Origin: an uncultured Acetobacteraceae bacterium
GTDB lineage: Bacteria; Pseudomonadota; Alphaproteobacteria; Acetobacterales; Acetobacteraceae
Assembly (NCBI GenBank): GCA_937873095.1
Contig: CALMVI010000091.1
Span: 1 to 35,585, forward strand
Reading direction: 5' to 3'
DNA length: 35,585 nt
In this document: in pieces, positions 1 through 27,161 of the stretch
How positions within the stretch are numbered: the stretch's first letter is position 1
How the letters are laid out: each line of letters opens with the position of its first letter
Position numbers and translations under genes: made by a program
Notes under the pieces: generated by a model
What the model was told of the DNA's origin: nothing
Database searches by the model: none
Seen by the model: only the letters and a program-made list of their open reading frames with translations

Positions 1-371
1 TGCCAAGCCGGCACTGGCGGCACGGACGACTGCCGGCGTGCAGGGGCCGACGATACGGGCAAAGCCCATGGGTCGGGGACCGGCGGCAGGCGTGTCGTCG
101 GCACCTGCACGGGTGCCTGCGGCGGCTGGGGTTCCTGCAGCGGCTGGGCGGATGCCGCCGGCCGCAGCACCGGCGCGGGCTGTGGCGCGGGCTGTGGCGC
201 GGCACGCTGCGCGACGCCGCAGAACGGGCAGAACGCCACGGCGAAGCCGAACGGCTTGCCGCAGGCGACGCAGGAGAGGCCGCGTTTGTGCCAGCCCGAC
301 CCGCTCACCCGGTCACCGGCGTCGCTGTCGTGGCCTGGCGCGGGGGCAGGGCCTGCCGCTCCGCGCCGCAT
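1..371 (-). CDS. Zinc-ribbon protein, N-terminal part (runs off left edge)
   Basis: Reading leftward from an ATG at 371, the frame stays open to the window edge (about 123 codons). A short polar start is followed at roughly residues 33-52 by a zinc ribbon with two CxxC knuckles (CVAC and CPFC, 13 residues between the pairs). Then comes a long Pro/Ala/Gln-rich, probably disordered linker. The functional domain, if any, lies outside the window. The frame is open upstream only to a stop at 426-428. The sole ATG is at 371 and has no clear ribosome binding site; a GTG at 308 directly before the ribbon is an alternative. The gene diverges from the VWA-like gene with about 66 bases between them, so it may share regulation with the tubulin-like cluster. 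The zinc ribbon is read directly; a role in the cluster is inferred from position. Confidence 0.65.
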   Translation of the reverse strand, partial: MRRGAAGPAPAPGHDSDAGDRVSGSGWHKRGLSCVACGKPFGFAVAFCPFCGVAQRAAPQPAPQPAPVLRPAASAQPLQEPQPPQAPVQVPTTRLPPVPDPWALPVSSAPARRQSSVPPVPAW

Positions 372-437
372 TTCTGGGGAAACATCTGCGCCTGGAAGGG
401 ATTGTTTGCGGCCATGATGTCTCGTCTAAAAGGCCCC

Positions 438-1997
438 ATGTCGAGACCCCGTTCCGCCACGCGCCGACTGGCGCGGGCCGCCATGCTGCTTTGGTGCGGC
501 CTGACCGGCCTGGGCCACGCCCGCCTGCTCGCGGCGCCGGTCCCGACAGCGGCACCGGCACCGGCACCGCAGGAAGTGTACCTGGTCCAGAACAGCGGCT
601 GGATGGAGCCGTTCTACCTCGATCCGCGCTCGCCCTTCCTGCCGCTGCTGCGCGCCTTCATCGGCGCCTCCGTCCTGCCGGGCGCGCGCGTCACGATCGC
701 GTCGTTCAACCAGGCCGGTCAGCTGGGCGACACGCCATCGCCGCTGCCGCTGTACACTGGCCCGGTGGACGGCCACGCGATGGGTGCGGCGCTCGGCAGG
801 CTGACGCTGCCGCGCCGTGCGGACGGCAGGTACACCGATGCCGACTACAACGGCGCGCTGTCGAACACGATCGCGCATCTGCTGGGCGGCGCGCCCGGGG
901 TGGTCTGGATGGTCACCAACAACAAGAACTCGCGCAGCAACGACCAGCACGTGGTGGAGAACACAAGCCGCTTCAGCTCGCAGCTGATGAACTCGGCCTT
1001 CATCAGCCAGATCGTCGCGTATCCGATCCGCCTCCCCGCGCAGGGGCCGACGTTCAGCGAGAAGGGGCTGGTCATCTACGGCATCGCCTACGGGGACGCG
1101 GCGGCACCGCTGCTTCAGCAGGCTTGCGGCAGTGCGGCGATGCGCCGGCTCGTGGTGGACCATCCTGTCCGCCTCAAGCCGCTGACGGTCGATCCGCTGA
1201 CGCTGACGCTGACCGGGGCGGAGGGCAGCGCCGTGCGGTTGCGGCGCTTGGCGGACGCCATCCTGATCGACGGCGTGCCTGGGGCGGCCGCGACGCAGGT
1301 CGACATCCCGGCGCGGCTGACCAGCAACTATTACCCGCAGGTCATCGACCACGCGCAGCTTCGGGCCGATTGGCTGCCCGATGGCGGCGCGCCGGCCGTG
1401 GCCGCCGAGATTGAGCCGCAATCCATCACGGCACTTGGCCCAGACGAGGTGCTGGACGGCGTGCGCGTGCACCTGGCAGTGCCGGCCATCGCCCGCGCCC
1501 CTGGCCTGGCGGGGCTGCTGCAGGGTCAGCGCCAGCTGCACGGCAGGTTGCGGCTGCAGCTGACCGACGTTCACCTGGTGCTGCAGCAGGCGTTTCTCGA
1601 CAAGATGCGCGGCCTGTTCGGCGCCGATGCGGAGGCGGCCGGGCGGCAGGTGAGCGGCGGAGACCGGCCGAGCGCGCTGCCGGCCGCCCTGCCTGCGGTG
1701 TTCCTGGGCCACGAGGCAGTGGCTTCTGCGTCGACCGACGTGCCGGTCGTGATCAACGTGGTGTTCTCGCCCTGGCCGCTGATCCTGCTGCTCTGCGCCC
1801 TGCTGTCCGCGGCGCTGCTGGCGGCGCTGCTGCTGATCGCCTGCCTGCGGGAGCGCACACACGACATCGCCGTCGGCAGCGAGACGATGCGGGTGGCGGT
1901 GCGGCCGTTCCGCTCGACCACGCTGCGGTCGCGGGCCGGCACGCGGGTCGCTGTGACCGGCCGGTTGTTCGGCCGGCCCAGGGTCACCGGCGCTTGA
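438..1997 (+). CDS. Membrane-anchored von Willebrand A-like protein with degenerate MIDAS
   Basis: 519 residues. A basic start and hydrophobic stretch (about residues 1-34) look like a signal peptide. A VWA-like core follows: strand 1 with VQNSGWM at 50-56 where a canonical VWA has DxSGSM, a long helix, a strand ending in TNN at 160-162 where TDG is usual, and a hydrophobic strand LVIYGIAYG from 211. A second, beta-rich region follows. One strong transmembrane helix lies at about 447-470, then a 49-residue basic tail, so most of the protein should face the periplasm. The Asp residues that bind metal in classical VWA domains appear replaced (D to Q and D to N), so metal-dependent adhesion is doubtful. 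Start choice: ATG 438 has AAAAGG four bases upstream; ATG 414 or 417 would add seven or eight residues. The VWA call rests on motif spacing read by eye and needs a structure-based search. Confidence 0.6.
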   Translation: MSRPRSATRRLARAAMLLWCGLTGLGHARLLAAPVPTAAPAPAPQEVYLVQNSGWMEPFYLDPRSPFLPLLRAFIGASVLPGARVTIASFNQAGQLGDTPSPLPLYTGPVDGHAMGAALGRLTLPRRADGRYTDADYNGALSNTIAHLLGGAPGVVWMVTNNKNSRSNDQHVVENTSRFSSQLMNSAFISQIVAYPIRLPAQGPTFSEKGLVIYGIAYGDAAAPLLQQACGSAAMRRLVVDHPVRLKPLTVDPLTLTLTGAEGSAVRLRRLADAILIDGVPGAAATQVDIPARLTSNYYPQVIDHAQLRADWLPDGGAPAVAAEIEPQSITALGPDEVLDGVRVHLAVPAIARAPGLAGLLQGQRQLHGRLRLQLTDVHLVLQQAFLDKMRGLFGADAEAAGRQVSGGDRPSALPAALPAVFLGHEAVASASTDVPVVINVVFSPWPLILLLCALLSAALLAALLLIACLRERTHDIAVGSETMRVAVRPFRSTTLRSRAGTRVAVTGRLFGRPRVTGA

Positions 1998-2076
1998 CGA
2001 CGAGCAAAGGACAGGGGCGTCACGCGCCAGCGTGCTGCGCACGACGCCCCCGAACCCTATCTTCAGGAATGGGGGT

Positions 2077-2129
2077 CTGGGGTTTCAAACCCCAGCGGGG
2101 TCCAGGGGCAGAGCTCCTGGCCTTTTTCT
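2077..2129 (+). terminator. Tandem hairpins ending in a T-run (rho-independent terminator)
   Basis: Two hairpins lie in series: CTGGGGTTTCAAACCCCAG (2077-2095) and CCAGGGGCAGAGCTCCTGG (2102-2120, an 8-bp stem with one G-U pair and an AGA loop). A run of five T follows at 2123-2127. This is the classical form of an intrinsic terminator. It lies about 80 bases after the VWA-like gene and only 18 bases before the next start codon, so it should separate the VWA-like transcript from the three genes that follow, unless it works as an attenuator. Confidence 0.75.
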
Positions 2130-2146
2130 AATGTGGAGCGGCGCGG

Positions 2147-2626
2147 ATGCAGCCATCGAGGAACCATCACGAGACGGACGCCCCGCCGCCATCCACCGGG
2201 GCGCCGACGCCCGACATCGTCATTCCGCCACCTGCCGGCTCGCCTTCGGCGGTCGAAACCGTGCCTGCGACCCAGGCGTCAGGCAGGCCGGCGGGCGCCG
2301 TCGATGCGCCGCCTGCCCTGTCGTCCACGCAGCTCGTCATCGTGGCGGTGCTGGTGCTGATCTGGGCGGGGCTGCTGATCTTCGCCAGGCGTCTGCTGAC
2401 GCAGTCGCTGGTGGCGCAGTTCGCCGATCTCGGCCGCGCGCGCGGCGCCGGCACCACGCTCTATCTGTTTCTGCTGGTGCTGGGCGCGACGCTGGCGGTC
2501 TGCGCCATCGGCGGCTACTGGACGACGGCCGACGTCACCATCCCCGCCGCGGTGCTGAACGCGGTGATGCTGGTGGTGTTCCTGTTCAGCTTCGGCGGCG
2601 CCCTGTCCTCGCGTCAGCGGCGCTAG
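2147..2626 (+). CDS. Small three-helix membrane protein of the tubulin-like cluster
   Basis: 159 residues of unknown family. Residues 1-58 are a Pro/Ala/Thr-rich, probably unstructured segment. Three predicted membrane helices follow at about 61-79, 103-122 and 133-152. A basic and polar loop (RRLLTQSLVAQF...RARG) joins helices 1 and 2, and the protein ends in SSRQRR. The start is supported by GGAG eight bases upstream. The next gene follows after 46 bases, so it is probably cotranscribed with the zinc-ribbon/propeller gene and the tubulin-like gene. A membrane anchor or partner for those two proteins is a reasonable inference, but no motif shows a specific function. The frame, hydrophobic pattern and ribosome binding site make it a real gene. 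Confidence 0.75.
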   Translation: MQPSRNHHETDAPPPSTGAPTPDIVIPPPAGSPSAVETVPATQASGRPAGAVDAPPALSSTQLVIVAVLVLIWAGLLIFARRLLTQSLVAQFADLGRARGAGTTLYLFLLVLGATLAVCAIGGYWTTADVTIPAAVLNAVMLVVFLFSFGGALSSRQRR

Positions 2627-2672
2627 GGCGGGTTCGTGCTGACCGCGTAGCCCGAACCTGAAGGCAGGCCGT

Positions 2673-4121
2673 ATGGATGGCGGGCGCTGGCAGTTCGACT
2701 GCGACGGCTGGACCGAGACCTGGCACCGTGGGCCGGGGGGCGGATTCGACCGCGTCGAGGTGGGTGGGCGCGCCTACTCGGTCGCCCGGGACGATTTGAC
2801 GGCGCTGCGGCCACGCTGCGGGGCTGGGTGCGCGGTCTGCCTCCGCGCCCTGCCGCACGCCTTTTCGCACTGCCCGGCCTGCGGCTGCGTGCTCGCGGAC
2901 TGCCCCGCGCCTGCCGAGCCGTGCCAGAGCGTGCCCAATGCCGGCCGGCCGGTCGCTGGTGTCGCGGCGCTGTCGCTGGCCGGGCCACCGGGGCTGCGGG
3001 AACGCGTGGCGCTGCCGCAGGAGGGGCGGACGTTCGCTTTCGCAGTCGCCGGCAACCCTGCGCGCCTGTTCGCGCTGGACCGGGACGGCGGATGGCTGCA
3101 CGAGTTCGACCGGCGGCGCGCGGGCTGGACCAGGATTGCCGGGCTGGGCGAGATCTCGCTGCCGGACAGAGGCTGGGGCATGGCGGCCGGCCGAGACGGC
3201 TTGGCCATCGCCAGCGCGGACCGGCTGACGGTCGTCGACCTCGCCCGCGGACCGGTGCCGCAGCCGGTCGCGACGCCGCTCGGCCAGGATGTCTGCGTCG
3301 GCGCCCCGTGCGCCCTGGGGAGCGAGCTGCTGGCGCTGGTCGCCCGCGGCGGCGCGCTGCTGCTGGCGCGGCGGCCGATGGTGCGCGGCGGCGACTGGGC
3401 GTTCGAGGCGGTGCGGGACGCCGCCCCTGCTCCAGGGACGGCCGACGCGTTCTCGGCGCCGATGGTGACCGAAACCAGGGCGAGCTGGGCCGGACGCGAC
3501 GGCACTGTCGTGCTCGAGGCGGGGGTGCCTGAGGCGGGGCACGGCACCGCCGGACAGCCGGTCTGGCGCGGGTGGAGCGAGGGGTTCGCGCCCTTTCTGG
3601 AGCACCGGCCCTATGTCGATCCCGATGGCAGGGTCTGGCAGCTCGGCACCATGCCGATCGGCGTCAACAGGCGCGGCCTGGGCTTCGAACGCGTCAGGCT
3701 GCACAGCCAGGTCGACCGGGAACGCATCGGCGGCACGGTGCTGGCGGCGGGCATACTGGCCTGCCGCCAGCTGATCCTGCGCCACCGCGCCTGGGTGGAG
3801 CGCAGCCCCTACGACCGCCATCTGCCGGGCGGCGAGGGCGATTTCCTGGTGCCCGTCCTGGCGTTCGACCGGCAGCGCTGCGTCGTGATCGTGGCCGAGG
3901 GCGGGGTGGGCGAACTGGCCAACGCAGGTCCAGACGGCGCCGGCACGCCCATCCCAAGCGGGCTGCGCTTCTATGACGGGCGCACGCTGCACGACCTCGG
4001 CCTGCCGGTGACGCTGCGCCGCCTGTCGCAGGTCTCGGCCTTCGTGTTCGCGCAATCCCTGTACATCTATGACGCGCAGGAGAACGAGTGCTGGCGCTGG
4101 CCCCTGCAACTGGCAGATTGA
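2673..4121 (+). CDS. Zinc-ribbon protein with propeller-like repeats
   Basis: 482 residues, no signal peptide or membrane helix. The N-terminal 45 residues are beta-rich. A cysteine cluster follows at 49-77 with knuckles CAVC (53-56) and CPAC (67-70) and extra Cys at 49, 72 and 77, which fits a zinc ribbon. From about residue 95 to the end there are repeated short strands with Gly/Asp turns (for example FALDRDGGWLHEF and LTVVDLARGP), the texture of a beta-propeller, although no named repeat such as WD40 or Kelch is clear. ATG 2673 has AAGG and AGG elements 6-11 bases upstream. It lies 62 bases before the tubulin-like gene on the same strand. It could be a cytoplasmic scaffold or sensor for that GTPase. 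This is inference; the enzyme-like alternatives are not supported by any visible catalytic motif. Confidence 0.7.
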   Translation: MDGGRWQFDCDGWTETWHRGPGGGFDRVEVGGRAYSVARDDLTALRPRCGAGCAVCLRALPHAFSHCPACGCVLADCPAPAEPCQSVPNAGRPVAGVAALSLAGPPGLRERVALPQEGRTFAFAVAGNPARLFALDRDGGWLHEFDRRRAGWTRIAGLGEISLPDRGWGMAAGRDGLAIASADRLTVVDLARGPVPQPVATPLGQDVCVGAPCALGSELLALVARGGALLLARRPMVRGGDWAFEAVRDAAPAPGTADAFSAPMVTETRASWAGRDGTVVLEAGVPEAGHGTAGQPVWRGWSEGFAPFLEHRPYVDPDGRVWQLGTMPIGVNRRGLGFERVRLHSQVDRERIGGTVLAAGILACRQLILRHRAWVERSPYDRHLPGGEGDFLVPVLAFDRQRCVVIVAEGGVGELANAGPDGAGTPIPSGLRFYDGRTLHDLGLPVTLRRLSQVSAFVFAQSLYIYDAQENECWRWPLQLAD

Positions 4122-4183
4122 TGTGCCGGCAGAGTGATGGCTGCAGATCATGAGACCGCGACGCTGACCGGGGAGCCGAGTTG

Positions 4184-7100
4184 ATGGCCGACGAGTTTCC
4201 ACCTGGCGCCGATGCGCCGACCGAACTGAAGCGTGTGCGCCCGACGCTGTACGTGGCGCTGGGCGGCACCGGCAAGGAGGTGCTGCTGCGGCTGCGTCGC
4301 CGCATCCTGGAAACCTTGTGGAACGGTCAGCGCATCGAGAAACTCGACGACTTCCGCGTCGCCTCCTTCCTGTATTTCGACCTGTATCAGGGGCGCGCCG
4401 AAGAGGAGCGCGCCGGCGATGACGGGGCGGAAGACCCGATCTCGGCGCTGGTGGACCTGCCCAAGAGCGACTGCATCCAGAAGCGGCTGGAGACCGGCAA
4501 GTATCTCAACGGGCGCGAGATCGACCGCTACCCGCATGTCAAGCAGTGGCTGCCTGCGGGCGACCTGCGCAGCATCCGTGCCGAGGACGGGGCGGGACAG
4601 GTGCGCGCGCTGTCGCGCCTGTTCTTCTTCGACGACGTGGCCAACATCAACGACGCGATCAACAGCAAGGCCCGCGCGCTGCTGCACAACGTGTCCAACA
4701 GCGAGGCGCTGCTGCGGCTGGGCGTGGAAGTGGAACCGCAGGTGCAGGTCATCGTGATCTGCTCGGTCGCGGGCGGCACCGGCTCGGGCAGCTTCATCGA
4801 CATGGGATACCTTGCCAAGTCGATGCAGAACCCGCGGCCGGATCAGGTTTCGCTCTACGCCATACTGGGCGGCGCGTTCGCCGACCTCAACGAGAAGCGG
4901 ATGCTGGCCAACAGCTACGCGGCGCTGATGGAACTCGACACCTGCATGCAGGGCACGCCGTCTCCGCCCTACGTGGAGAACTGGACCGACACGATACGCA
5001 ACACCGCCTCCTACCCCTATGACAGCGTCTATCTGGTGGACGGCCGCAACATGGGCGGGCAAGGCACCGGCAACCGCGGGGACCTGTACCGCATGGTGGC
5101 CGACGTGCTGTTCGAAGACCTGCGCGACCCGCAACTGCGCGGCAAGAAGCGCGAGGATCTTGTCAACCAGAACACCAATTACCGACTGGAGCCGTACAGC
5201 CCGCCGATGCCGCCCGACCTGCAGGCGCTGTCGCTCGCGTTCAGCCGTGCGTATTCCGGCGTCGGCCAGTGCACGCTCAGCACGGACGGGCGGACGGAAT
5301 TCGACATGGAAACCGCGCGCGCCGCACGGCAGATGCTGTCGGCGTTCTTCCGCTTGCAGGCCGACGATCGCGCGAACACGCCGCAACCGGGCGAACGCGA
5401 CGAGTTCATGCGCACTGCGCTGTACCTCGACAAGGGCAGCTTCTTCCAGGAGTTCCCAAGCGCCTTCGCGCCCAAGCCGCCGGCGATCCCCGACCTGCCC
5501 CTGGTCGGCCGCATCCTGCAGAACAACGCGGTCGATGCCGTCAGCGACCTGCGCGCGCAGCTCCGCGCGGATTTCGAGGAGATACGCGGGGCGTTGCCCA
5601 ACCGGGCGGACTGGCGCGCGGCGATAGAGCAGCTGCGCGTCAAGCGGGAACGCGACATCCTGGGCGACATCACGCAGCAGAACCCGTTCGGCCCGCGGCT
5701 GCTGGCGGTGCGCGAGCAGAGCAGCCGCATCCTCGCCGAATGGAGCCGGACGGACGGCCTGCGCCAGTCGTTCTTTGCGCGCATCGACAACGCCGAACTG
5801 GGCGGCGTCGTCTACACCATACGCCTGATCCAGCAGATCCAGGACGAGATCGCGGTGGAAGGCGGGTTCATCACCCGCATGCACCGCGCGGCCGAGCAGT
5901 ACGACGCGCACGCGAAATCGCTGATCGACAGGTTCTACGCCCGCGCGCTGGAGAACCTGACAAAGGCGGTCAGGAAGAACTGGCTCGGCTCGATCGATAC
6001 GGACGCCATCGAACGATGCATGCAGCAGCTCGAGGAATCGCTGTTCTACACGCTGCAGTACCGGCTGCGCTCGGCTGCCTGCCTGGAGGCGGTCAGGCTG
6101 CTCGGCAGCCTGCGCGATCTGCTCGGGCGTCCGGACGGCGCATCGGGCCAGCCCAGGCCGGCGAGCATCCTGGCAGAGATCGAACAGGGCAACCTGGCCG
6201 TGCAGGAAACGGTGCAATCGATCGAGCAAGAACTGCGCGTGCTGCGCGACAGCATACGCGGCGGGGGCCCGATGTCGCAGGTGATACGCGGCGGCAAGCT
6301 GAACGAGCCGGTCAGCGGCGACTACGCGCAATGGGGGCGGGAGGCGCTGTCCGGCCAGGGCGGTTCGCGCATCATGTTCGAGGAGCTGAGGAAGCCGCAG
6401 ACCCGCGCGCGCATCGTCAGCCGCCTGCGCGGGGTGGCGCGCGAACGCATGCGCGACCGCGAGAGCCGGCTGCCCACGGTGCTGCAGGCGCTTGGCGACC
6501 TGAGCGAGCCAGAGCGCAACACGCTGTTCGGCGCGGCCATGCTGCAGGCGCTGCCATGGCTCAACGTCGACCCGCAGCGCATGGACCCGAGCTTCGACGG
6601 CAGCATGGTGAGCGTGTTCGTCTCGGTCGAGAATGCCGCCGAGATGGCCCAGCACTATGGCGAGACGCTGCAGCGCAGGCTGCCTGCGCTCTACCAGAAC
6701 AAGCGCATCGGCTTCGTGTCCTCCACCGTGCGCGGCCGCATGGTGATCTATTCCGAAGTCACCGGCCTGGCCCTGACCGCGCTGGTGCCGATGCATGACG
6801 ACCTGCGCCGCGCCTATGACGACAAGAACAGCAAGGAGGAGCGCTCGCCGCTGCACAACGACGCGGACAAGGCACGCTTCCGCCACCCGACCGCGATGTC
6901 GCTGCAGGACATGGAAGCGCTCGCCCAGCGTGTGGCGCTGTACCTGCGCGGCGTGCTGCTGGGCGTGCTGCGGCGGCGGGCCGACCGGGACTACGAACTC
7001 GACACGTCCAGCAACGATGTTGAGGACTGGTTGTCCATCGGCAGCGAGCAGCACATCTACCTGCGCGCGTTCAAGGCGGACCGGCGGGCGATGCTGGAGC

Positions 7101-7780
7101 GCAGGCTTGCCCGCATCGAGGACGGATTCTCACCGCTTCAGCGCGCGGGCTATGTGGCACTGCTCGACCACACCCTCGATCGTGTCTACCCGAAACGGCG
7201 CGTGCGGCGGGCCGACGGCAACGAACTCAGGGTCGGCGGCGTCGCCTGCCTGGCCGTGCAGCAGTTGCGGCGCGCGGCGATGTCCAGGCTGGCGCAGAGT
7301 CGTGCGCCGCTGCCCGCGGCGCCGGAAGCCGTGGTGTCTGCCCTGCTGCGCGGCATCGCCGCGTGGACGGCCGAGATCCCAGGCAGCCGCGCCGACACCA
7401 CGCCGCTGGAGGCCGACCCTGGCCGGGCTGAGGACAAGCGTACGATCGACTGGGAGCGTTTCTCCGACGCCCAGCTGGCCGCCCTGATCAACCCCGTCAA
7501 CGTCGCCCCGCCGCCTTTGCCCGCGCCGCCAGCGCTGCCCGCCTCAGTGTCGGCCCCGATGCCGCGGTACCACGCGATCATCGACGGGCAGGATAGCGGC
7601 GCGCTGGACCGCGACGCGCTGGAAAGCCACGCACAGGCCGGGATCCTGACCGGGTCCACGCTGGTCTGGGCTCCCGGCATGCCAGACTGGGCGGCGGCGA
7701 GGGACGTGCCGGCACTGGCCGCCCTTCTCGCCGCCTGCCGCCCGCCGCCTCTGCCCGGCACGGCGCGCGCGACGGTTTAG
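4184..7780 (+). CDS. Large FtsZ/tubulin-like GTPase with C-terminal GYF_2 domain
   Basis: 1198 residues. The N-terminal region resembles the Tubulin_2 (bacterial tubulin-like) family. A first nucleotide loop ALGGTGKE lies at about 25-32. The tubulin/FtsZ signature AGGTGSGS (196-203) follows a hydrophobic strand (VIVICSV), as in FtsZ GGGTGTG. The middle, about 400-1100, is mainly helical and unlike FtsZ (about 380 residues), so this is not the division protein. A proline-rich linker (about 1103-1125) leads to a GYF_2/DUF4339-type domain (about 1128-1182: YHAIIDGQDSG...LVWAPGMPDWAAA), which usually binds proline-rich partners. ATG 4184 has GGGGAG eight bases upstream. It closes the plus-strand cluster with the small membrane protein and the propeller-like protein. 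GTP-dependent filament formation at the membrane is likely from the family; its cellular role is unknown. Confidence 0.85.
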   Translation: MADEFPPGADAPTELKRVRPTLYVALGGTGKEVLLRLRRRILETLWNGQRIEKLDDFRVASFLYFDLYQGRAEEERAGDDGAEDPISALVDLPKSDCIQKRLETGKYLNGREIDRYPHVKQWLPAGDLRSIRAEDGAGQVRALSRLFFFDDVANINDAINSKARALLHNVSNSEALLRLGVEVEPQVQVIVICSVAGGTGSGSFIDMGYLAKSMQNPRPDQVSLYAILGGAFADLNEKRMLANSYAALMELDTCMQGTPSPPYVENWTDTIRNTASYPYDSVYLVDGRNMGGQGTGNRGDLYRMVADVLFEDLRDPQLRGKKREDLVNQNTNYRLEPYSPPMPPDLQALSLAFSRAYSGVGQCTLSTDGRTEFDMETARAARQMLSAFFRLQADDRANTPQPGERDEFMRTALYLDKGSFFQEFPSAFAPKPPAIPDLPLVGRILQNNAVDAVSDLRAQLRADFEEIRGALPNRADWRAAIEQLRVKRERDILGDITQQNPFGPRLLAVREQSSRILAEWSRTDGLRQSFFARIDNAELGGVVYTIRLIQQIQDEIAVEGGFITRMHRAAEQYDAHAKSLIDRFYARALENLTKAVRKNWLGSIDTDAIERCMQQLEESLFYTLQYRLRSAACLEAVRLLGSLRDLLGRPDGASGQPRPASILAEIEQGNLAVQETVQSIEQELRVLRDSIRGGGPMSQVIRGGKLNEPVSGDYAQWGREALSGQGGSRIMFEELRKPQTRARIVSRLRGVARERMRDRESRLPTVLQALGDLSEPERNTLFGAAMLQALPWLNVDPQRMDPSFDGSMVSVFVSVENAAEMAQHYGETLQRRLPALYQNKRIGFVSSTVRGRMVIYSEVTGLALTALVPMHDDLRRAYDDKNSKEERSPLHNDADKARFRHPTAMSLQDMEALAQRVALYLRGVLLGVLRRRADRDYELDTSSNDVEDWLSIGSEQHIYLRAFKADRRAMLERRLARIEDGFSPLQRAGYVALLDHTLDRVYPKRRVRRADGNELRVGGVACLAVQQLRRAAMSRLAQSRAPLPAAPEAVVSALLRGIAAWTAEIPGSRADTTPLEADPGRAEDKRTIDWERFSDAQLAALINPVNVAPPPLPAPPALPASVSAPMPRYHAIIDGQDSGALDRDALESHAQAGILTGSTLVWAPGMPDWAAARDVPALAALLAACRPPPLPGTARATV

Positions 7781-7792
7781 CGGCTGGCAGGT

Positions 7793-8824
7793 TCAGCGAA
7801 GCAGCGCCTCGACAAGCAGACCGGGCCGGGCTTCCTCGCGTATCTGCTCGCGCGTGCACTGGCGCGGCGCCTTGTCCAGGCGCCAGCGCAGCAGGCCGGT
7901 GCCGTGCCGGAAGCGCCCGGCGCTGACGTGGTCGTAGCTGACCTCTACCACCAGTTCGGCGTGCAACGGCTCCCAGGCTGAGGAACGTTCGGTGCTCCAG
8001 CGGCTCGGCCCGCCTGGCGCGTCACCATCGAACCCGGCGCCGCCGCGCAGCGCGTCCAGCTTCGACGTCAGGGCCGCGCGCTCGGCATTGGCGATGGCGG
8101 ACGTGAAGCCGACATGGTCCAGCCGGCCGGCCTCGTCGTACAGGCCGAGCAGCAGCGAGCCGACCTGCTGCGTGCCGGCGGCGTAGCGGAAGCCGCCCAC
8201 GACGCAATCCGCGGTGCGCAGGCGCTTCACCTTCAGCATCTCGCGGCGGCCAGGGGCGTAGGCGGCGTCCAGCCGCTTGGCCACCACCCCGTCGAGCGCG
8301 CCGTGGGTCGTGTCGAGCCAGAGCTGCGCCTGTGCAGGATCGCGGGTGAACGGGGTCAGACGCACATGGTGCGCGCGCCCAAGCACGGCTGCCTGGCGTT
8401 GGAGGGCCTCGCGCCGCGCGGACAGGGCCAGGCCGATCGTGGCCGAGCCTTCGGCATACAGGCAGTCGAACAGGACGAGCAGGGCGGGCGTTTCGGCAGC
8501 CAGCCTGCGGATCCGGGTGTCGGCGGGGTGGATGCGGTCCTGCAGCGCGGCGAACGACAGGCTGTCGCCCACGGGGATGGCGAGTTCCCCGTCGAGCACG
8601 AAGTCGTCCGCCGGTGCGCGGGCGAGCGCCGACAGCATTTCGGGGAAGTAGCGCGAGAGCGACTTGCCGGATTTGGCGCGCAATTCGACCTGGCCCGCGG
8701 ATTTGAAGGCCAGGCAGCGGAAGCCGTCCCATTTCGGCTCGAACTGCCATCCCTCGCCGGTCGGCAGCGCGCCGACCGAGCGGGCCTCCATCGGTTCGGT
8801 GTCGAGCGGCGGAAATCCTGTCAT
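7793..8824 (-). CDS. ATP-dependent DNA ligase, LigC-like
   Basis: 343 residues. It joins DNA nicks through an enzyme-AMP intermediate. Motif I is EPKWDGFR with the adenylated lysine at residue 31. DGELAIP (motif III region), DGVVAKRLD (motif IV) and LKVKRLRTADCVV (motif V) follow in order. The C-terminal OB-fold region (about 210-330) contains HAELVVEVSYDHVSAGRFRHG. There is no polymerase or phosphoesterase domain as in full LigD, and no Ku gene in the window, so this is a stand-alone LigC/LigB-type ligase, probably for repair. ATG 8824 puts PPLDTEPM at the start as in the family, but no ribosome binding site is clear; ATG 8851 would add nine residues. It ends 12 bases from the stop of the convergent tubulin-like gene. 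Confidence 0.9.
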   Translation of the reverse strand: MTGFPPLDTEPMEARSVGALPTGEGWQFEPKWDGFRCLAFKSAGQVELRAKSGKSLSRYFPEMLSALARAPADDFVLDGELAIPVGDSLSFAALQDRIHPADTRIRRLAAETPALLVLFDCLYAEGSATIGLALSARREALQRQAAVLGRAHHVRLTPFTRDPAQAQLWLDTTHGALDGVVAKRLDAAYAPGRREMLKVKRLRTADCVVGGFRYAAGTQQVGSLLLGLYDEAGRLDHVGFTSAIANAERAALTSKLDALRGGAGFDGDAPGGPSRWSTERSSAWEPLHAELVVEVSYDHVSAGRFRHGTGLLRWRLDKAPRQCTREQIREEARPGLLVEALLR

Positions 8825-8937
8825 GCGACACGCAGACGCGCGGCGGGGCATGCGGGTTTGATGCTGCCTGGCTTGTTCTGCAACCTTTGGGTGGCTCGCC
8901 CGTCGTGGCACGCACACGCTTGCGTCTAGGAGCATCG

Positions 8938-10695
8938 ATGGACACCACGCCGCATCCCCTGGTCGCCGCCGGACGCCGATCGCTGTTCGCCACCTTCCTG
9001 CCGATGTCGGCGACCTGCTTCGTGGGCGCGCTGCTGACCGACATCGCCTATTGGCAGAGCGCGTCCATCCTGTGGGCCGATTTCTCCGTGTGGCTCATCA
9101 CCGCCGGCCTGGTCATGGCGGGCCTGACGCTGCTCGGCGCGTTGGTCGACATGGTGCGCAGCCGCCGGTCGGCCGGTCTGCGCCTGGCCTGGGCCAGCCT
9201 GCTCGGCGCGGTCCTGGCGACTGCGCTGTCGCTGATCAACGCCTTCGTGCACAGCCGCGATGCTTACACCTCCGTGGTGCCGACCGGGCTGATCCTGTCG
9301 GCGACCGTGGTGCTGATCCTGCTTTTGCTGAACGTGGACTGGCGTGGCCGCACGGCGGCACGGCGGCCCGGCTCCGGCCTGGCGGGTGTGACGGGCGCCG
9401 CAATCGTGGTGTTCTTCGGCGCGATCGGGTCGGTGTTCGCGTTTTCGGGAACCGACAAGACGTCGGCCGATCCTGCAAAGCAGATCGGCCGCGATCCCGA
9501 GTTGCCGGCGCCGCACAACTACCTGTTGCCGCCGATGCGCATCGCTCCTGTGGCGCGTTGGGGCCAGGGCGAGACGCCGAAGGTGCCTGCCGGATACAAG
9601 GTGGAGGCGCTGGCGACCGGGCTGTCCCATCCCCGCTCGGTATACGTGCTGCCCAACGGCGACGTGCTGGTTGCCGAGTCCAGCGGGCCCGCGCAGCCGG
9701 TCAGCCGGCCCAAGGACGTCATCATGGGCTGGGTGCAGGCCTATGCCGGCGCCAAGGAGAAAGGTGCGAACCGCATCACGCTGGTCCGCGCGGCGACGGG
9801 ATCGTCACCTGCGCTGAGGACCGTGTTCCTCGACCACCTCAACTCTCCTTTCGGCATGGCGCTGGTCGGGCATGATCTCTACGTCGCCAACACCGACGCG
9901 GTGGTGCGCTATCCGTATGAGGACGGGCAGACCGGCATCACTGCGCCGGGCACGATCCTGACGATCCTGCCTGGCGGCCCGATCGACCACCACTGGACCA
10001 AGAGCATGGTTGCCAGCCAGGACGGGTCGAAGCTTTACGTGGGCGTAGGATCGAACAGCAACATCACCGAGAACGGCATCGGTGCCGAGCTTGGCCGCGC
10101 GGACATATTGGAGGTCGACAGGGCGTCCGGCGCTTCGCGCATCTACGGCGCGGGCCTGCGCAACCCGACCGGGCTGGGCTGGGAGCCGCAGAGCGGGAAG
10201 CTGTGGACCATCGTCAACGAACGCGACGAGCTGGGGCCGAACCTCGTGCCCGACTACATGACGGCGGTCCAGGATGGCGGGTTCTACGGCTGGCCCTACA
10301 GCTATTACGGCCAGCACGTGGATGCGCGGGTGCAGCCGCAGCGGCCCGACCTGGTGGCACGCGCGATCGTGCCCGACTACGCGCTCGGCTCCCACATGGC
10401 GCCGCTGGGGCTTGCGTTCTACAGCGGGACCAGCCTTGCCGCCTATCACGGCGGAGCGTTCGTGGGCGAGCACGGCAGCTGGGACCGTACCCCGTTGAGC
10501 GGCTACAAGGTGGTGTTCGTGCCGTTCAGCGACGGACGCCCGAACGGGCCGCCGCAGGACGTGATGACGGGGTTCCTGACCGCAGACGGCCGCGCCCATG
10601 GCCGCCCCGTCGGACTGGCTGTCGACAAGAGCGGTGCGCTGCTGGTGGCTGACGACCTGGGCAACACCGTCTGGCGCATGTCGCCGGACCATTGA
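8938..10695 (+). CDS. Fusion of DUF2231-type membrane domain and PQQ-dependent sugar dehydrogenase
   Basis: 585 residues. Residues 1-170 carry about five membrane helices (near 15-35, 48-70, 83-104, 113-132 and 148-168), in the pattern of DUF2231. After a periplasmic linker, residues 215-585 match the soluble glucose/L-sorbosone dehydrogenase family, a six-bladed propeller that oxidises sugars with pyrroloquinoline quinone. Visible family motifs are LSHPRSVYVLPNGDVLVAES, RNPTGLGW, NERDELG, YGWPYSYYG and EHGSWDRTPLSGYKVVF. The enzyme should sit in the periplasm, tethered by its N-terminal domain, perhaps passing electrons to the quinone pool (inference). The start has GGAG seven bases upstream. 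No PQQ synthesis genes are in the window. The substrate cannot be told from sequence. Confidence 0.88.
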   Translation: MDTTPHPLVAAGRRSLFATFLPMSATCFVGALLTDIAYWQSASILWADFSVWLITAGLVMAGLTLLGALVDMVRSRRSAGLRLAWASLLGAVLATALSLINAFVHSRDAYTSVVPTGLILSATVVLILLLLNVDWRGRTAARRPGSGLAGVTGAAIVVFFGAIGSVFAFSGTDKTSADPAKQIGRDPELPAPHNYLLPPMRIAPVARWGQGETPKVPAGYKVEALATGLSHPRSVYVLPNGDVLVAESSGPAQPVSRPKDVIMGWVQAYAGAKEKGANRITLVRAATGSSPALRTVFLDHLNSPFGMALVGHDLYVANTDAVVRYPYEDGQTGITAPGTILTILPGGPIDHHWTKSMVASQDGSKLYVGVGSNSNITENGIGAELGRADILEVDRASGASRIYGAGLRNPTGLGWEPQSGKLWTIVNERDELGPNLVPDYMTAVQDGGFYGWPYSYYGQHVDARVQPQRPDLVARAIVPDYALGSHMAPLGLAFYSGTSLAAYHGGAFVGEHGSWDRTPLSGYKVVFVPFSDGRPNGPPQDVMTGFLTADGRAHGRPVGLAVDKSGALLVADDLGNTVWRMSPDH

Positions 10696-11300: not shown

Positions 11301-12626
11301 TTAGGGCGCGGACAGCCTGGACGGACGGCGGAGCACCTTGGGCGGCGGCTGGCCGTCGCGGCCCTGCTTCAGAAGCCCCTTCCTGCGACGAGCCTCCTTG
11401 TTCTGCGGGTCCAGTCGGAGCACCGCGTCCAGATGGTCCTGGCTTTCGGCCGTCCGGCCATCCGCCAGCATCAGCTCGGCCATCCGCAGCCGCGCGGTGA
11501 CGTTGTTGGGCGCGTGGCGTAACGCCTGCCGCAACGCATCGCGCATTCCGACCTGGTCGTCCAACTTGGCGAGCAAGCGGTATTGCGCCATCGCCGACTG
11601 CGCTTCCCGCTCGCAATGCAGCTGGGCCAGCCTGAAGATCACGTCGATGCTCCCGTCCACGCAGGCATCCTGGGTCGGCGTCTCGGCAGGCGCGTCGGCG
11701 TAGCTGCTGCCGAACAGGCCCTTGCGGTCGGGGAAATAGGCCGACCGGACGGCTTCGTTGGACGCTTCGAACAGGTGCATGAACGCCTGCGCGTCTTGTG
11801 CGGCAAGCTGCCAGCCGGCGCCCCTGCACTGCGATTCGACCGCCTGCGTGATCAGTCGCCATTCCGGCATGGTGTTCAGGCTGCCCGTGGACGCTCGTCC
11901 GGCCAGGCGGCGGATGGCGCGCATGAGCAGGTGCTGGCCGACCAGGTTGATGCTCTGGTTGCTGGCGGACGGCTCGCCGGTGTCGATCCTGGCGCCGATG
12001 CTGCGCAGGAAATCGTCGACCACGTTTCGGTTCAGCAGGCTGTCCCGCTCGAAGATGCGCGGCATGACCGCGGACCGGCCGAAGGCGTTCGCGTACCGTG
12101 CGAGCAACGCCTCGTAATCGAGCGCCCTCATCTCAACCGGTTTCGGCAGGTTGGTGTCCGGGATGATGCCCGATTTGAGAAACTCGTTGTAGCCGCTGCC
12201 GACATGCTGGTCCTGGCGGCGCAGGTAGACGATGACCGTGACCCTGTCGAAATGCGGGCGCAGCCACGCCGCCAGCCGGCCGACCTCGTCGTCTTGCTGC
12301 AGCCAGTTGGACAAATGCTCGCTGCTGATCACGCAGGCTTTGGCCCAGTCCGGCAGGTGCTCCAGCTCGTGGGTGAACTCGCGCCGGAAACGCTCGAGCC
12401 GGGTCTGCGGAGCGACACCGCCCCACATCGGATGCCCCCGCCCAGGTGCCCCCGACAGGTCGTTGAGCACGCAGGCCGGCAGCAGGGAATGCGAGGCCTT
12501 TGCCGGCCTGTTCTGCACGTAGATCCCGCATTGCTCCAGCTCGCGGCGGCGCTGCGAGATGGTGTTCTGGATGGCGGTCGAACCGGTCTTGGTCGTGCCG
12601 ATATGCAGATGGAGCTCGCGGCCCAT
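11301..12626 (-). CDS. Sulfotransferase-like protein with C-terminal TPR repeats
   Basis: 441 residues. The N-terminus HLHIGTTKTGSTAIQ (7-20) is the 5'-phosphosulfate-binding loop of PAPS-dependent sulfotransferases. The strand VTVIVYLRRQDQHVGSGYNE fits the second PAPS-binding region (R...S/G). From about residue 340 on, helical repeats (LRQALRHAPNNVTARLRMAELMLADGRTAESQDHLDAVLRLDP) match tetratricopeptide repeats. The predicted role is to sulfate a sugar or surface polymer, with the TPR tail binding a partner. It starts 10 bases after the upstream giant glycosyltransferase, and AGG elements lie just before its ATG, so the two are likely cotranscribed and may act on the same glycan. Acceptor and true sulfotransfer activity are not shown by sequence. 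Confidence 0.8.
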   Translation of the reverse strand: MGRELHLHIGTTKTGSTAIQNTISQRRRELEQCGIYVQNRPAKASHSLLPACVLNDLSGAPGRGHPMWGGVAPQTRLERFRREFTHELEHLPDWAKACVISSEHLSNWLQQDDEVGRLAAWLRPHFDRVTVIVYLRRQDQHVGSGYNEFLKSGIIPDTNLPKPVEMRALDYEALLARYANAFGRSAVMPRIFERDSLLNRNVVDDFLRSIGARIDTGEPSASNQSINLVGQHLLMRAIRRLAGRASTGSLNTMPEWRLITQAVESQCRGAGWQLAAQDAQAFMHLFEASNEAVRSAYFPDRKGLFGSSYADAPAETPTQDACVDGSIDVIFRLAQLHCEREAQSAMAQYRLLAKLDDQVGMRDALRQALRHAPNNVTARLRMAELMLADGRTAESQDHLDAVLRLDPQNKEARRRKGLLKQGRDGQPPPKVLRRPSRLSAP

Positions 12627-12636
12627 GACGCCTGAC

Positions 12637-15600
12637 CTACAAGGACCCGATCAGCGGGCTTGCGAGGATGCGCTCGGCCACCGCAGCGGGGTTCAGCTTG
12701 GCGCGCACGGCTGCCTCGCCGAGCTTGCCCACGGCCCGGGCGTGCTCGCGGTCGTCCAGCACGCGCCGGAACAAATCCGCGGCGTCTGCAATGTTCGGCT
12801 CGCCCCACACGGAACCGCGCTGGAACGGGCCGTCAGCCTCCTTGACAAGCGTCTCCTTGCACGGAACCAGGAAGCTGTTCGTTTCGTCCATGTATTCAAG
12901 GTTGCCCGAATAACCCGACGCGATCACCGGCACGCCGTACCACATCGCCTCGGCCAGGGTGTAGCCGAAGCCTTCGGACCGGTGCAGGGAGACGTAGCAA
13001 TCCGAGTGCGCAACCAGCGAGAGCAGGGCGGACCGTGTCAGCACGCGTCCGTCGAAGACGATGTTCAGTCCTGACCGTCGCGCCTCGTGCCGCAGCGACT
13101 GGATGCGCGCCGCGTGCTCGATCCGGTCGAGGTTGCCGACCTTGAGGTAGAGCTCGACCTCCTCGGCCTGCCTGGTGCCGGCAAACGCGCGCACGAAGGC
13201 GTCGAGAACGCCTTCGGGATTCTTCCGCTCCATCGAACTGTTCGCATCGAAGACGAAGGTGAAACGGAAGCGGCTCTCGCGATCGACAGGCTCGATGGTG
13301 ACGTCGTGCACGGACACGACGTTGGGAATGACACGCACCTTGTCGCCGAACAGATGCCGGAACGGGGTGGCGGCGAACTCCGAAATCATCCAGATCTCGT
13401 CGTAGCGGTCATAGACGTCGCGCCAGCGCGCGTTCCAGTCGCGCTGCTCCCAAGCCAGATGGATGACGTTCGCCCGGCCTGTCATGTAGTCGCGTGGCAG
13501 CACGCCGAAGAAGTCTTCGGACTGGTGAGGGTAGGACACGATGACGTTGCAGGCCGCCGCGTAGTCGAAGTTGTGGAACAGCTGGTGCAGCCGAACGCCC
13601 GCGGTCACGCTGCCGGTGCAAAGCGGCAGGCGCCGAACGGTCACGACCTGCTGGGCGGCGTTCGCCAGACCCCTGGTGGACTCGCCCACGCCCGTATCGG
13701 CATGGAAGAAGCCGAACACGTTGACGTGCTTGAGAGAGTCGTTCAGCAACGGGGGAGCGACTTCGGCAGTCGGCGCGACCTTCAGGTATTGCGTTCTTGC
13801 TGCCTGGAAGGCGGTTGCGAGGATGTGCGCCGCATCCCGCATCCTGTCGTTGGAGCGCAGGAAGCCGCCCACTGTCTTGTTCACCGGCTTGTCGACGATG
13901 ACCCTCTGCTTGATCTCGTTTTCCAGGTAGTTGGAGAACTCGTCGGAGTAGGTGGCGTGCAGGCGGCAGCCATAGGCCGCCCACTGGGTGTCGCGGCTTT
14001 CTTCCGGCAGCATGGCCGTCTTGTTGGACGGCAGACGGGAGCTCACAGCCCTGCGGCGAAGTGTCGGCAGCTCCAAGTAGAACGGCACCAGGACGTGCCT
14101 CTCGTATCGGTGCAGGAACATCATGATCTCTACGTCGGCAAGATCATACTCCAGCCCTTCGCCCGCGCCCCTGATCAGTTCACGCACAAGGTCCCAAGGC
14201 CCATCGGCCAGCAATTGCCGATATGCCAGCTCGCCCAGATCTTCCCGGCGCGCACAGAACGAGAAGAGTCGGGCAAGAGTGATGTTCCAGTGTCTGTCCT
14301 TGTAAGCCTCAAGCGACTCCTCGGGCAGGTTATGGTCATGCACCCCGTGTTCGGTGAGCCAGGTCAGGAACCCGTGGTGCGAGGCGCCGAACAAGAACGG
14401 GTGCGCGGCCTGCAGGTCGGGCCGGGTTTCCCAAACGGCCAGGACAGCCGAGAGCGGCGTGGAAAACGGCAGTTCGCATCGGCCGCCCATCAGCGTCGCC
14501 GCGAGATCGGTCTTGCCGAACGAGCGGAGCGTGTCTGCTGCCTCCCGCCGCTTGACGCCCAGAAACTTCAGCGGCGCGCCGAGCGTGACGAGCAGCTGCT
14601 CGACGGCCTGGGAGAACCCGACGAAAGCGTCCGACACGAGTATCTGCCGGAAGCCGCTGATGATTTCATGCAGGTCGTACTCTGCTCCCGCATTCTCCAT
14701 GAACCATGTCCAGTAGCGGTGGGAGTGCAGGGCCGAGGTATGGGCGTTCGGGAACCCCGAGCGCAGGTCGGGTCTGGCCTCGTAGATCTCGGCAGCCAGC
14801 AGCGGCAGCAAGGACCCGGTCGCAGGAAGCGGCGACATCAGGAACGCGCACAGCCGGTCGGCGCCGGACTTCGATTGCGCGTCGAATTTCGGTATGTAGG
14901 CCTCGTATTTCTTCAGTATCTCCCGGACGTACGCGTTCAGCCTTATGCCGTTTCCCAGCCGGTCGAAACGGTAGGGGATGACCGATTGCGACACGTAGTC
15001 GCAACCGTAAAGCTGCATGCTGTACCACGCCAATATGTCGGCAACCGCAGGCATGTTATAGACGACGTAGCGGCCGTCATGGCGCGAAAGCGCCAGCGTG
15101 TCGCGCGGGTTGAAGCCGCTGAAATGAAAGAAGACGAGCGGTTGGCCGTCGACGGTCCAGCCCTGCTCGCGACCGTCGAGCATGTTGGACCGCAAGCCCC
15201 GCTCGTGCAGGTTCCAGTATGCCACGTTGTAGGCGCGGTCCTTCAGCATGCAGAACCGGTCGACCATCAGCGAGGCCCAGTTGAAATACTGCTGGTCCGT
15301 CTGCCCGCCCGCCATGTTGTAGAACGTTCCCGGGCCAAGGTTGAACCGTTCCCAAAATTCCAGGAAAGCCGCGCAGTTTGCCGGCCTGATCCCGAAACAT
15401 CCAGCGTTTATCAACCCTGAATTGAATATATCGGCGGTGCTCGGGTGCACCCAGTAGCGTTCAGGCTTGTCGAACGGCGCGTAGGTATGCGGAACTGCAA
15501 CGACATCGCTGGTCTCCAGCGCCGTCAACAGCGTGTCCAGCCTGGAGAACACCGCTATGTCGGTATCGAAATAGATCAGGCACTCGGCACGTCGGCCGAC

Positions 15601-15987: not shown

Positions 15988-16124
15988 CGATCACATCCAC
16001 CCCTGCCTCACCCAAAACCGTACGCCAATGCAGGGCGCGAGACAAGACGCCCCCACATCATGCGGACGGCTGGCGGGCGTCGAACCGGCCGCCTCCGCGG
16101 CATGCGAGCGTCGCGTCTTGTGCC

Positions 16125-16769
16125 TCAATCGAGCTTCGGCACCTCGGAAAAGCTGTCCAGAAACATGTTGCAGTAGCGTGATATGAAAGCGAAGTCCTCC
16201 TTGAAGTGGTTGGTTATCCAGTCCAGCTCCTGTGCCTCGAGGTCGGAGCGGCGCAGCTTTCCCGAGCTCATGTTGAGGGATTTCATGCCGGCGAGCCGCT
16301 CACGTCCCAGACGGTCCATGATGATGTCGAGACCTTCCGACAGCCGGTCGTAGCTGATGATGTAGTTCGCGCCGATCCTGCCGGTCGCGTCCAGGAAACG
16401 CCTGTATTGCGGGATCACCTGGGACGCATTTGCAGGCACCCATTGCTGGAGGAATTGGCCGAACGTCATGTCGCCCGTGTACAGCCGGGGCGACTTCTCC
16501 ATGAAATGCACGCTGTTATGCGAGTTGTAGAGGCTCAACATGAAGTCGTACGGGTCCCGTACGACGCCGAATATGAGAAACCGCCTGACATCCTGCTCCA
16601 CGAACAGCCAACCAAGGTTGGTCATCATCTGCGCAACCGTCATGTGCTTGCCGAAGCGCGATTCGATGAGGCAGATTTCCGATCGGGGGCGCAAAGCGGC
16701 TTCGATCGATGTTGATGCCGTCTTCAGTGTTGCAAGAAAGATGAAGCCTTGTCTCAGGTTTATGATCAA
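16125..16769 (-). CDS. Sulfotransferase-like protein
   Basis: 214 residues. The N-terminal FIFLATLKTASTSIEAAL (about 9-26) is the 5'-phosphosulfate loop of the Sulfotransfer family. FGVVRDPYDFMLSLYNSH (about 67-84) matches the 3'-phosphate-binding region, with R and S at the usual places. It likely moves sulfate from PAPS to a carbohydrate. It is upstream of the giant glycosyltransferase on the same strand with a 137-base gap, so it may have its own transcript. The start codon appears to be TTG 16769: no ATG lies between it and the upstream stop, and starting later would remove the PAPS loop. Its codon choice (ATA, AAA, TTT more often than neighbours) differs from the flanking LysR and trxB genes, consistent with an accessory, possibly acquired, glycan cluster. 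Confidence 0.78.
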   Translation of the reverse strand: MIINLRQGFIFLATLKTASTSIEAALRPRSEICLIESRFGKHMTVAQMMTNLGWLFVEQDVRRFLIFGVVRDPYDFMLSLYNSHNSVHFMEKSPRLYTGDMTFGQFLQQWVPANASQVIPQYRRFLDATGRIGANYIISYDRLSEGLDIIMDRLGRERLAGMKSLNMSSGKLRRSDLEAQELDWITNHFKEDFAFISRYCNMFLDSFSEVPKLD

Positions 16770-27151: not shown

Positions 27152-27161
27152 TACAAGGGCG

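What the first reader, a model, noticed from the sequence alone, without database searches (positions are those of the whole stretch)
1..7780. Tubulin-like GTPase module with VWA-like, zinc-ribbon, propeller-like and membrane partners
Five neighbouring genes combine a 1198-residue FtsZ/tubulin-like protein (AGGTGSGS at 196-203), a VWA-like membrane protein, a three-helix membrane protein and two zinc-ribbon proteins. Two FtsZ-like families tied to predicted membrane remodelling have been described (Makarova and Koonin, as I recall), one with VWA partners, but the partner set here, with a GYF_2 tail on the GTPase, is not one I know as characterised. A cytoskeletal system spanning cytoplasm, membrane and periplasm is a fair hypothesis.
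Basis: partly seen in the sequence, partly recalled or inferred. Interest (0 to 1): 0.88.

Follow-up and report, generated by a model that had tools for sequence, protein, structure and literature searches.

The report
Five-gene tubulin-like envelope module
These bacteria carry a conserved, uncharacterised set of five genes that pairs a large tubulin-like protein with partners placed in the cytoplasm, the inner membrane and the periplasm, which looks like a cell-envelope machine built around a bacterial relative of tubulin.

Summary
The window (one whole contig) carries four same-strand genes: a VWA-fold membrane protein, a three-helix membrane protein, a zinc-ribbon/beta-propeller protein and a 1198-aa Tubulin_2 protein with a GYF_2 tail. 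A divergent fifth gene, cut by the contig end, encodes a zinc ribbon, a proline-rich linker, a membrane helix and PEGA domains; its rest lies on contig C133. The set is a real unit. In 299 genomes of the family, the Tubulin_2 protein and the VWA protein each occur in 6, the same six. Of 24 loci examined (two families plus an Azospirillum plasmid), 24 have the propeller and three-helix genes and 23 the VWA gene. AlphaFold models support the propeller and, less strongly, the VWA fold. The VWA metal site is lost (Q-x-S-x-W for D-x-S-x-S, 23 of 23); a remote relative beside another Tubulin_2 gene keeps it. The GYF_2 tail marks this subtype: 24 of 24 members, 0 of 5 other Tubulin_2 proteins. It is a well-defined new variant of the FtsZl1/VWA system predicted by Makarova and Koonin in 2010. 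Best reading: a GTP-regulated tubulin-like scaffold docked to an inner-membrane complex that reaches the periplasm. Polymerisation and function are inferred, not shown.

The parts
3..371 (-). Zinc ribbon (CVACG..CPFCG) and proline-rich linker: N-terminal part of a zinc-ribbon/Pro-rich/one-TM/PEGA protein cut by the contig end; the rest is at about G000:C133:2-541
   Evidence: translation; PEGA 1.6e-8 in the C133 part; the full-length relative L016:13446-14609 has a sub-threshold Zn ribbon match and PEGA 7.9e-16; hydrophobic stretch in the C133 part
417..1997 (+). VWA-fold membrane protein: N-terminal signal-like helix, VWA fold about residues 50-240 with lost MIDAS (Q58-N-S-G-W62, N168), beta domains, one TM (456-474), short C-terminal tail
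   Evidence: (pLDDT 87, pTM 0.76)
2147..2626 (+). Three-helix membrane protein with Pro-rich N-terminal tail that carries the conserved motif PDIVIPPPAG
2673..4121 (+). Protein with N-terminal zinc ribbon and beta-propeller (residues about 100-480); no signal by eye, only a weak hydrophobic stretch (213-231) inside the propeller
   Evidence: (pLDDT 76, pTM 0.79)
4184..7780 (+). Tubulin_2 (FtsZ-like 1) protein, 1198 aa
4247..5332 (+). Tubulin_2 domain, residues 22-383
4769..4792 (+). Phosphate loop AGGTGSGS, residues 196-203; A196, G197, G198, T199, G200 and G202 invariant in 22 of 22 aligned proteins
7568..7717 (+). GYF_2 domain, residues 1129-1178

Best explanation
It is a conserved five-component, envelope-associated system centred on a Tubulin_2 (FtsZ-like 1) protein. 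Shown by sequence or prediction: the Tubulin_2 protein keeps the tubulin-type nucleotide loops; the propeller protein has no signal; the VWA protein has a signal-like N-terminus and one C-terminal membrane helix; the three-helix protein and the zinc-ribbon/Pro-rich/TM protein have membrane helices. Inferred: GTP binding switches or polymerises the Tubulin_2 protein on the cytoplasmic face. Its GYF tail docks to the proline-rich linker of the zinc-ribbon/TM protein, and the propeller acts as an adaptor. The three-helix protein couples this to the periplasmic VWA domain, which has lost its metal site and so would bind its ligand in another way. In some lineages a peptidoglycan-binding-like or OmpA protein could tie the complex to the wall. 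The output would be local remodelling or positioning of an envelope structure.
For: The same 6 of 299 family genomes have the Tubulin_2 protein and the VWA protein. 24 loci examined: propeller 24, three-helix 24, VWA 23, in order PROP-VWA-TM3-TUB in 21. A zinc-ribbon protein with a hydrophobic stretch follows the Tubulin_2 gene in 16 of 17 loci of the second family (the other runs into a contig end) and such a protein is found for the other seven too (for G512 only its TM/PEGA part is seen). Distances of the three large proteins correlate at r 0.94-0.97 over 17 loci. GYF_2 in 24 of 24 system members (19, 2, 3), in 0 of 5 non-system Tubulin_2 proteins. Models. A neighbour in G369 matches 17kDa_Anti_2 and, just at its cut-off, PG_binding_1; OmpA genes are annotated in Azospirillum. 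A separate FtsZ is present in 4 of 4 genomes looked at.
Against: No assay exists; polymerisation is unproven and the T7 loop was not identified. A profile comparison with four FtsZ sequences aligned only the GGTG loop, at 2.5% probability. GYF-to-linker docking was not modelled, and the linker is not proline-rich in 2 of 16 loci (L076, L094). In 5 of 16 the hydrophobic stretch of the zinc-ribbon protein falls below the cut of 1.6, in L076 clearly. By the positive-inside rule the three-helix protein's tail is more likely periplasmic, so it is probably not the GYF ligand. The VWA fold rests on middling Z values, and plain Foldseek ranks other beta proteins first. The patchy spread (6 of 299; both same-genus genomes, 85 and 89% complete, lack it) and the plasmid copy beside caspase genes would also fit a conflict system. 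On the Azospirillum plasmid no VWA gene was found.
Confidence: 0.5

Rival explanations
1. A biological-conflict (defence or programmed-death) system like the GTPase/tubulin/vWA systems of Kaur et al. 2020, in which GTP-dependent assembly sets a threshold and a membrane or caspase effector kills the cell.
For: Kaur et al. describe tubulins with vWA, zinc ribbons and membrane parts, and tubulin with HSP70 (PMC7159879, passages). The closest VWA relative outside the system, in L017, lies between other genes and a Tubulin_2 gene that neighbours an Hsp70-like ORF (named by eye). The Azospirillum copy sits on a mobilizable plasmid with three caspase-family genes (caspase domains confirmed in the two scanned). 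Sporadic distribution.
Against: No PADLOC match for any of the five proteins at E<=0.1. In G369, G512 and G560, and within genera of the sampled second family, the neighbours look like ordinary chromosomal genes that recur from genome to genome (named by eye). Pfam shows no caspase or other effector domain in the window's five proteins.
Confidence: 0.2
2. A membrane-remodelling or vesicle-forming machine, as Makarova and Koonin proposed for FtsZ-like 1 systems in general.
For: Same core (Tubulin_2 plus VWA plus membrane proteins plus OmpA in some) (PMC2875224).
Against: That proposal rests on gene context. Nothing here points to vesicles, and a reviewer in the same paper preferred transport or signalling.
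Confidence: 0.15
3. A non-polymerising GTP switch that gates a transport or signalling complex.
For: T6-H7 elements could not be assigned in FtsZl1 (PMC2875224); the partners look like adaptors and sensors (propeller, zinc ribbons, VWA, PEGA).
Against: No transporter or enzyme is part of the set conserved over the 24 loci.
Confidence: 0.15

Closest known systems
FtsZ-like 1 (FtsZl1, Pfam Tubulin_2) systems, Makarova and Koonin 2010 (PMC2875224; text parts 1-2 of 5 read, passages of the rest, supplements not seen)
   Same: Large Tubulin_2 protein with long non-FtsZ C-terminal part, VWA partner, membrane partners, OmpA in some, separate FtsZ in the genome
   Different: Fixed five-gene composition, GYF_2 tail, zinc-ribbon/propeller protein, zinc-ribbon/Pro-rich/TM protein, VWA without the D-x-S-x-S metal site (the paper says it is intact in the majority), no kinase or P-loop GTPase among the window's five proteins and two neighbours scanned (relatives' neighbours not all scanned). 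The paper's unnamed families B1-B9 could include some of these partners.
DO-GTPase/GAP1 and tubulin/HSP70 conflict systems, Kaur et al. 2020 (PMC7159879; passages only)
   Same: Tubulin-family protein with vWA and membrane components; zinc ribbons occur there too
   Different: No DO-GTPase, GAP1, HSP70 or FNIII protein recognised in the window's cassette; other partners
AgmX/GltJ of the Myxococcus gliding machinery (identity of AgmX with GltJ and its ZnR-GYF-TM layout are recalled; searches found no paper on it)
   Same: Its GYF domain is the only PDB sequence match of the Tubulin_2 protein's profile (7z3c, E=2.2e-6); zinc ribbon, GYF and membrane-anchored parts serve a GTPase-driven envelope machine (recalled)
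   Different: GYF is on the Tubulin_2 protein here and the zinc ribbon on the membrane partner; the GTPase families differ; no other homology tested

Membership tests
Tubulin_2 / FtsZ-like 1 | Match to Pfam PF13809 above its cut-off | tested here: met
   182 bits against cut-off 27; 22 of 22 in A7 match at E<=0.001
Tubulin_2 / FtsZ-like 1 | GTP-binding loop GGTG(S/T)G | tested here: met
   G197, G198, T199, G200 and G202 invariant in 22 of 22; position 201 is S in 12, A in 8, G in 2; T1 loop G27, G28, G30 invariant
Tubulin_2 / FtsZ-like 1 | VWA gene in the operon | tested here: met
   VWA fold by AlphaFold and VIA-align, remote relative with intact MIDAS; 23 of 24 loci
Tubulin_2 / FtsZ-like 1 | Extended coiled coil after the GTPase domain | not tested
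   No coiled-coil prediction and no structure of the Tubulin_2 protein was made
Canonical FtsZ/tubulin (PF00091) | Match to PF00091 | tested here: not met
   No match at E<=1 in the window protein; three of the five non-system Tubulin_2 proteins match it weakly, below cut-off; the genome has a separate FtsZ
Canonical FtsZ/tubulin (PF00091) | T7 loop and GTP-dependent polymerisation | not testable with these tools
   T7 could not be assigned; needs biochemistry
VWA domain | VWA fold | tested here: met
   Most of the 50 VIA-align rows are VWA domains, Z 8.1-9.4, model residues about 47-250; these Z values are middling by the tool's own note, but the remote relative in L017 has a canonical VWA metal site
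VWA domain | MIDAS motif D-x-S-x-S plus third-loop D | tested here: not met
   Q58, S60, W62 and N168 in 23 of 23; aligned to D-N-S-G-S and T-D-N of the L017 relative
Beta-propeller | Propeller fold | tested here: met
   Foldseek E down to 8.5e-7 against a WD40 domain; VIA-align Z 19.6 over 337 residues
DO-GTPase/GAP1 conflict systems | DO-GTPase and GAP1 genes present | tested here: inconclusive
   None recognised among the five proteins, but the contig ends on the left and not every neighbour was scanned

The most novel reading that the evidence does not exclude
A tubulin-driven trans-envelope machine, a bacterial counterpart of a focal adhesion: a GTP-regulated tubulin-like polymer on the inner face of the membrane is tied through GYF/zinc-ribbon adaptors and a three-helix protein to a periplasmic VWA domain that has swapped its metal site for an invariant metal-free surface, and to the cell wall, so that cytoplasmic assembly and periplasmic binding control each other.
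Probability: 0.2. Interest if true: 0.85.

Novelty: new variant of a known kind. Interest (0 to 1): 0.62.

Why it matters
Tubulin_2 proteins have been predicted since 2010, but the listings of my searches in the held library (one search showed 30 of 125 papers) named no function for them. This report gives one subtype a fixed parts list, a diagnostic tail domain, a VWA domain that lost its metal site, and many chromosomal copies in one large family, which makes the open question of what FtsZ-like 1 proteins do testable by ordinary genetics.

Tried and rejected
Rejected: that the genes are a chance grouping (co-occurrence and order across two families). Rejected: that the Tubulin_2 protein is the cell-division FtsZ (separate FtsZ). 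Rejected: a simple GYF-to-TM3-tail docking model, because charge bias puts that tail outside (loop 1 has 3-4 K/R and at most one D/E in 24 of 24; the tail has more D/E than K/R in 23 of 24, the exception being the Azospirillum protein; several start codons were my choice).

Led nowhere: two genome-contig scans with the Tubulin_2 protein found no relative; viral-contig scans with its profile and the VWA profile found none; plasmid searches with the window's VWA and propeller proteins found none; PDB sequence search with the VWA profile gave nothing useful; PADLOC gave nothing; the FtsZ profile comparison was weak. A weak phage-collection match for the Tubulin_2 protein (MT836542, 24% covered) was not followed. 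A G453 peptidoglycan-binding-like protein has no clear match in the window's own genome (best E=0.016). Absence of a fold from a structure list was not used as evidence.

A profile search then found a remote VWA relative in L017, which one search shows to have an intact metal site. The GYF_2 count was completed.
Full report
What is there. The window is one complete contig (C91, 35585 bases) of a 3.69-Mb, 162-contig draft genome (contig length). The left 7.8 kb hold four same-strand genes with gaps of 149, 46 and 62 bases and a divergent fifth gene cut by the contig end. Only the Tubulin_2 protein is recognised by Pfam above cut-off (Tubulin_2 2.4e-53, GYF_2 2.8e-13); NCBIfam and PADLOC recognise none of the five. 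The fifth gene's missing part is at the start of contig C133. A query made of two proteins of relative G369 matched both contig ends, and the C133 frame holds a hydrophobic stretch and PEGA domains. The two contig ends were not joined.

Is it a unit? In 299 genomes of the same family the Tubulin_2 protein was found in 6 and the VWA protein, by its own profile, in 6: the same six, from 3 of 102 genera. The chance of that overlap, if genera were independent, is about 6e-6. In 398 genomes of the phylum the profile of the Tubulin_2 protein matched 55; only G000, G369 and G944 match over nearly its whole length. The other 52 match in the GYF region or, in G899 and G839, in part of the Tubulin_2 domain. 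In G944's family 46 of 195 genomes, 7 of 44 genera, matched; one of these is a short fragment. I examined 24 loci: 6 of the window's family, 1 Azospirillum plasmid, and 17 of the 46 in the second family (L076 and L094-L109).

Across the 24 loci the propeller gene is present in 24 (L102 and L015 by profile), the three-helix gene in 24 and the VWA gene in 23. The order PROP-VWA-TM3-TUB holds in 21; one of these (L027) has an extra small ORF between VWA and TM3. The window and G453 have VWA-TM3-PROP-TUB, and the Azospirillum plasmid has PROP-TM3-TUB. A zinc-ribbon protein follows the Tubulin_2 gene in 16 of 17 loci of the second family; the other, L105, ends at a contig end. After the zinc ribbon comes a linker with 22% or more proline in 14 of 16 (10-11% in L076 and L094), then a hydrophobic stretch that passes a Kyte-Doolittle cut of 1.6 in 11 of 16, lies at 1.37-1.55 in four, and in L076 is seen only by eye. 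In G369 and G630 the zinc-ribbon protein lies downstream, after a small protein. In G560 it is at a contig end, as is the cassette. In G512 only its TM/PEGA part is seen at such an end. In G453 it lies at a second locus next to lpxB, which is where the whole cassette sits in G369, G512 and G560 (lpxB named by eye). In Azospirillum it is about 4 kb from the Tubulin_2 gene. The small protein of G369 matches 17kDa_Anti_2 (2.1e-6) and PG_binding_1 (8.9e-5, at its cut-off). Sequence distances of VWA, propeller and Tubulin_2 proteins over 17 shared loci correlate at 0.94-0.97. Relatedness of the genomes alone would also give a high value, so this only suggests that no component was swapped.

The Tubulin_2 protein. 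Invariant in 22 of 22 aligned proteins are G27, G28, G30, D66, A196, G197, G198, T199, G200, G202, D206, E250 and N289. GYF_2 is found in 19 of 22. The three without it are the non-system proteins L018, L019 and L077; two further non-system proteins (L017, L078) also lack it at E<=0.1. The five system members not in that alignment have it (L095, L105; L096, L106, L109), so 24 of 24. The only PDB sequence match of the profile at E<=10 is the GYF domain of Myxococcus AgmX. PF00091 is not matched by the window protein, and the genome has its own FtsZ. Whether it polymerises is open; Makarova and Koonin already could not assign T6-H7 in this family.

The VWA protein. AlphaFold (pLDDT 87, pTM 0.76) gives a fold whose residues about 47-250 match VWA domains at Z 8.1-9.4 in most of the 50 listed rows; the top row is archaeal ArnAB and row 5 is a bacterial VWA protein. 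Plain Foldseek ranks other beta proteins first. The first metal-site loop reads Q-[ND]-S-G-W in 23 of 23 and the third-site loop T-N-N-x-N-S; D141 and D143 are invariant. A remote relative supports both the fold and the loss. In L017, near another Tubulin_2 gene, a 563-aa frame matches the VWA profile (E=1.4e-5; two weak stretches pass), has the same signal/VWA/TM layout, and reads I-D-N-S-G-S-M and V-T-D-N at these loops. So the metal ligands D, S and D of the usual site stand against Q, W and N here. Makarova and Koonin state that the metal site is intact in the majority of FtsZl1-linked VWA proteins. One helix at 456-474 and a signal-like N-terminus put the VWA domain in the periplasm (inference).

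The propeller protein. The model (pLDDT 76, pTM 0.79) matches many propellers (Foldseek E 8.5e-7; VIA-align Z 19.6 over 337 residues). The zinc-ribbon cysteines are kept wholly or partly in the window protein and most relatives but lost in L097-L100, L105 and L109 (alignment).

The three-helix protein. All 24 have three helices. Its variable tail carries one conserved short motif: D[FI]x[IL] followed by PP in the 6 proteins of the window's family, and [DN][AP]GFx[LV]P in the 17 of the second family (L095 read by eye, since the script pattern missed it); none in Azospirillum. Charge bias suggests the tail is periplasmic, which makes it a candidate ligand of the VWA domain rather than of GYF. 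The proline-rich linker of the zinc-ribbon/TM protein, taken as cytoplasmic, is the better GYF candidate. GYF domains bind proline-rich peptides (established knowledge; the review by Kofler and Freund was seen only as a reference in PMC7159879).

Other Tubulin_2 contexts. By profile, none of L017, L018, L019, L077 and L078 has the propeller or three-helix gene, and only L017 has a VWA relative. L017 also has an Hsp70-like ORF; L018 and L019 have a VWA-like protein of another kind and ABC-type genes; L077 has a caspase-like gene and a zinc-ribbon/TM protein (names by eye; pattern). The five-gene set is thus a subtype, not the rule for Tubulin_2. A 2023 survey also notes that Tubulin_2 proteins are sparse and irregular in domain make-up (PMC9871819, passages).

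Comparison and novelty. The closest description in the held library is Makarova and Koonin 2010 (text parts 1-2 of 5 read, other passages searched; supplements not readable here). Kaur et al. 2020 (passages) describe tubulin/vWA conflict systems with other cores. The listings showed no paper describing this partner set; a listing under an unnamed family in the 2010 supplement cannot be excluded. I therefore call it a new variant of a known kind.

Mechanism. Shown: conserved composition, domain folds by prediction, nucleotide-loop conservation, the diagnostic GYF tail and the lost VWA metal site. Inferred: topology, docking of GYF to the proline-rich linker, GTP-dependent assembly and an envelope function. 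Against: no experiment, patchy spread, and a plasmid copy beside caspase genes in which no VWA gene was found.

Noticed in passing
window 25861-28547: msrA (PMSR 6.6e-53), an msrB-like ORF, a cytochrome b561 and a molybdopterin oxidoreductase lie together (msrB and the MsrPQ-like reading are by eye): a possible methionine-sulfoxide repair cluster.
   Followed up: partly
window 11301-16769: Lower-GC stretch (59-66%) with a 1116-aa glycosyltransferase that also matches 'GT4-conflict', a TPR protein and a sulfotransferase: possibly an acquired surface-glycan locus.
   Followed up: partly
window 7793-8935: ATP-dependent DNA ligase core without further LigD domains.
   Followed up: no
window 8887-10695: Fusion of a DUF2231 membrane domain with a sugar/sorbosone dehydrogenase domain.
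   Followed up: no
window 19339-20280: Retropepsin-like aspartyl protease with two matched stretches.
   Followed up: no
L015 (Azospirillum sp. TSA2s plasmid p2) 7448-23066: Variant of the module in which no VWA gene was found, with three caspase-family genes, OmpA and DUF4384 proteins, near type IV secretion genes.
   Followed up: partly
L017 10925-12613 (-) with 7230-10295 (-) and 4277-6061 (-): Remote VWA relative with intact metal site near a Tubulin_2 gene and an Hsp70-like ORF (by eye), reminiscent of the tubulin/HSP70 systems of Kaur et al. 2020; a possible evolutionary link to the window's module.
   Followed up: partly
L018 8568-18999 and L019 9127-19001: A different Tubulin_2 locus with a VWA-like protein (by eye; Pfam below cut-off for the L018 one), ABC-type genes and a formylglycine-enzyme-like protein (by eye).
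   Followed up: no
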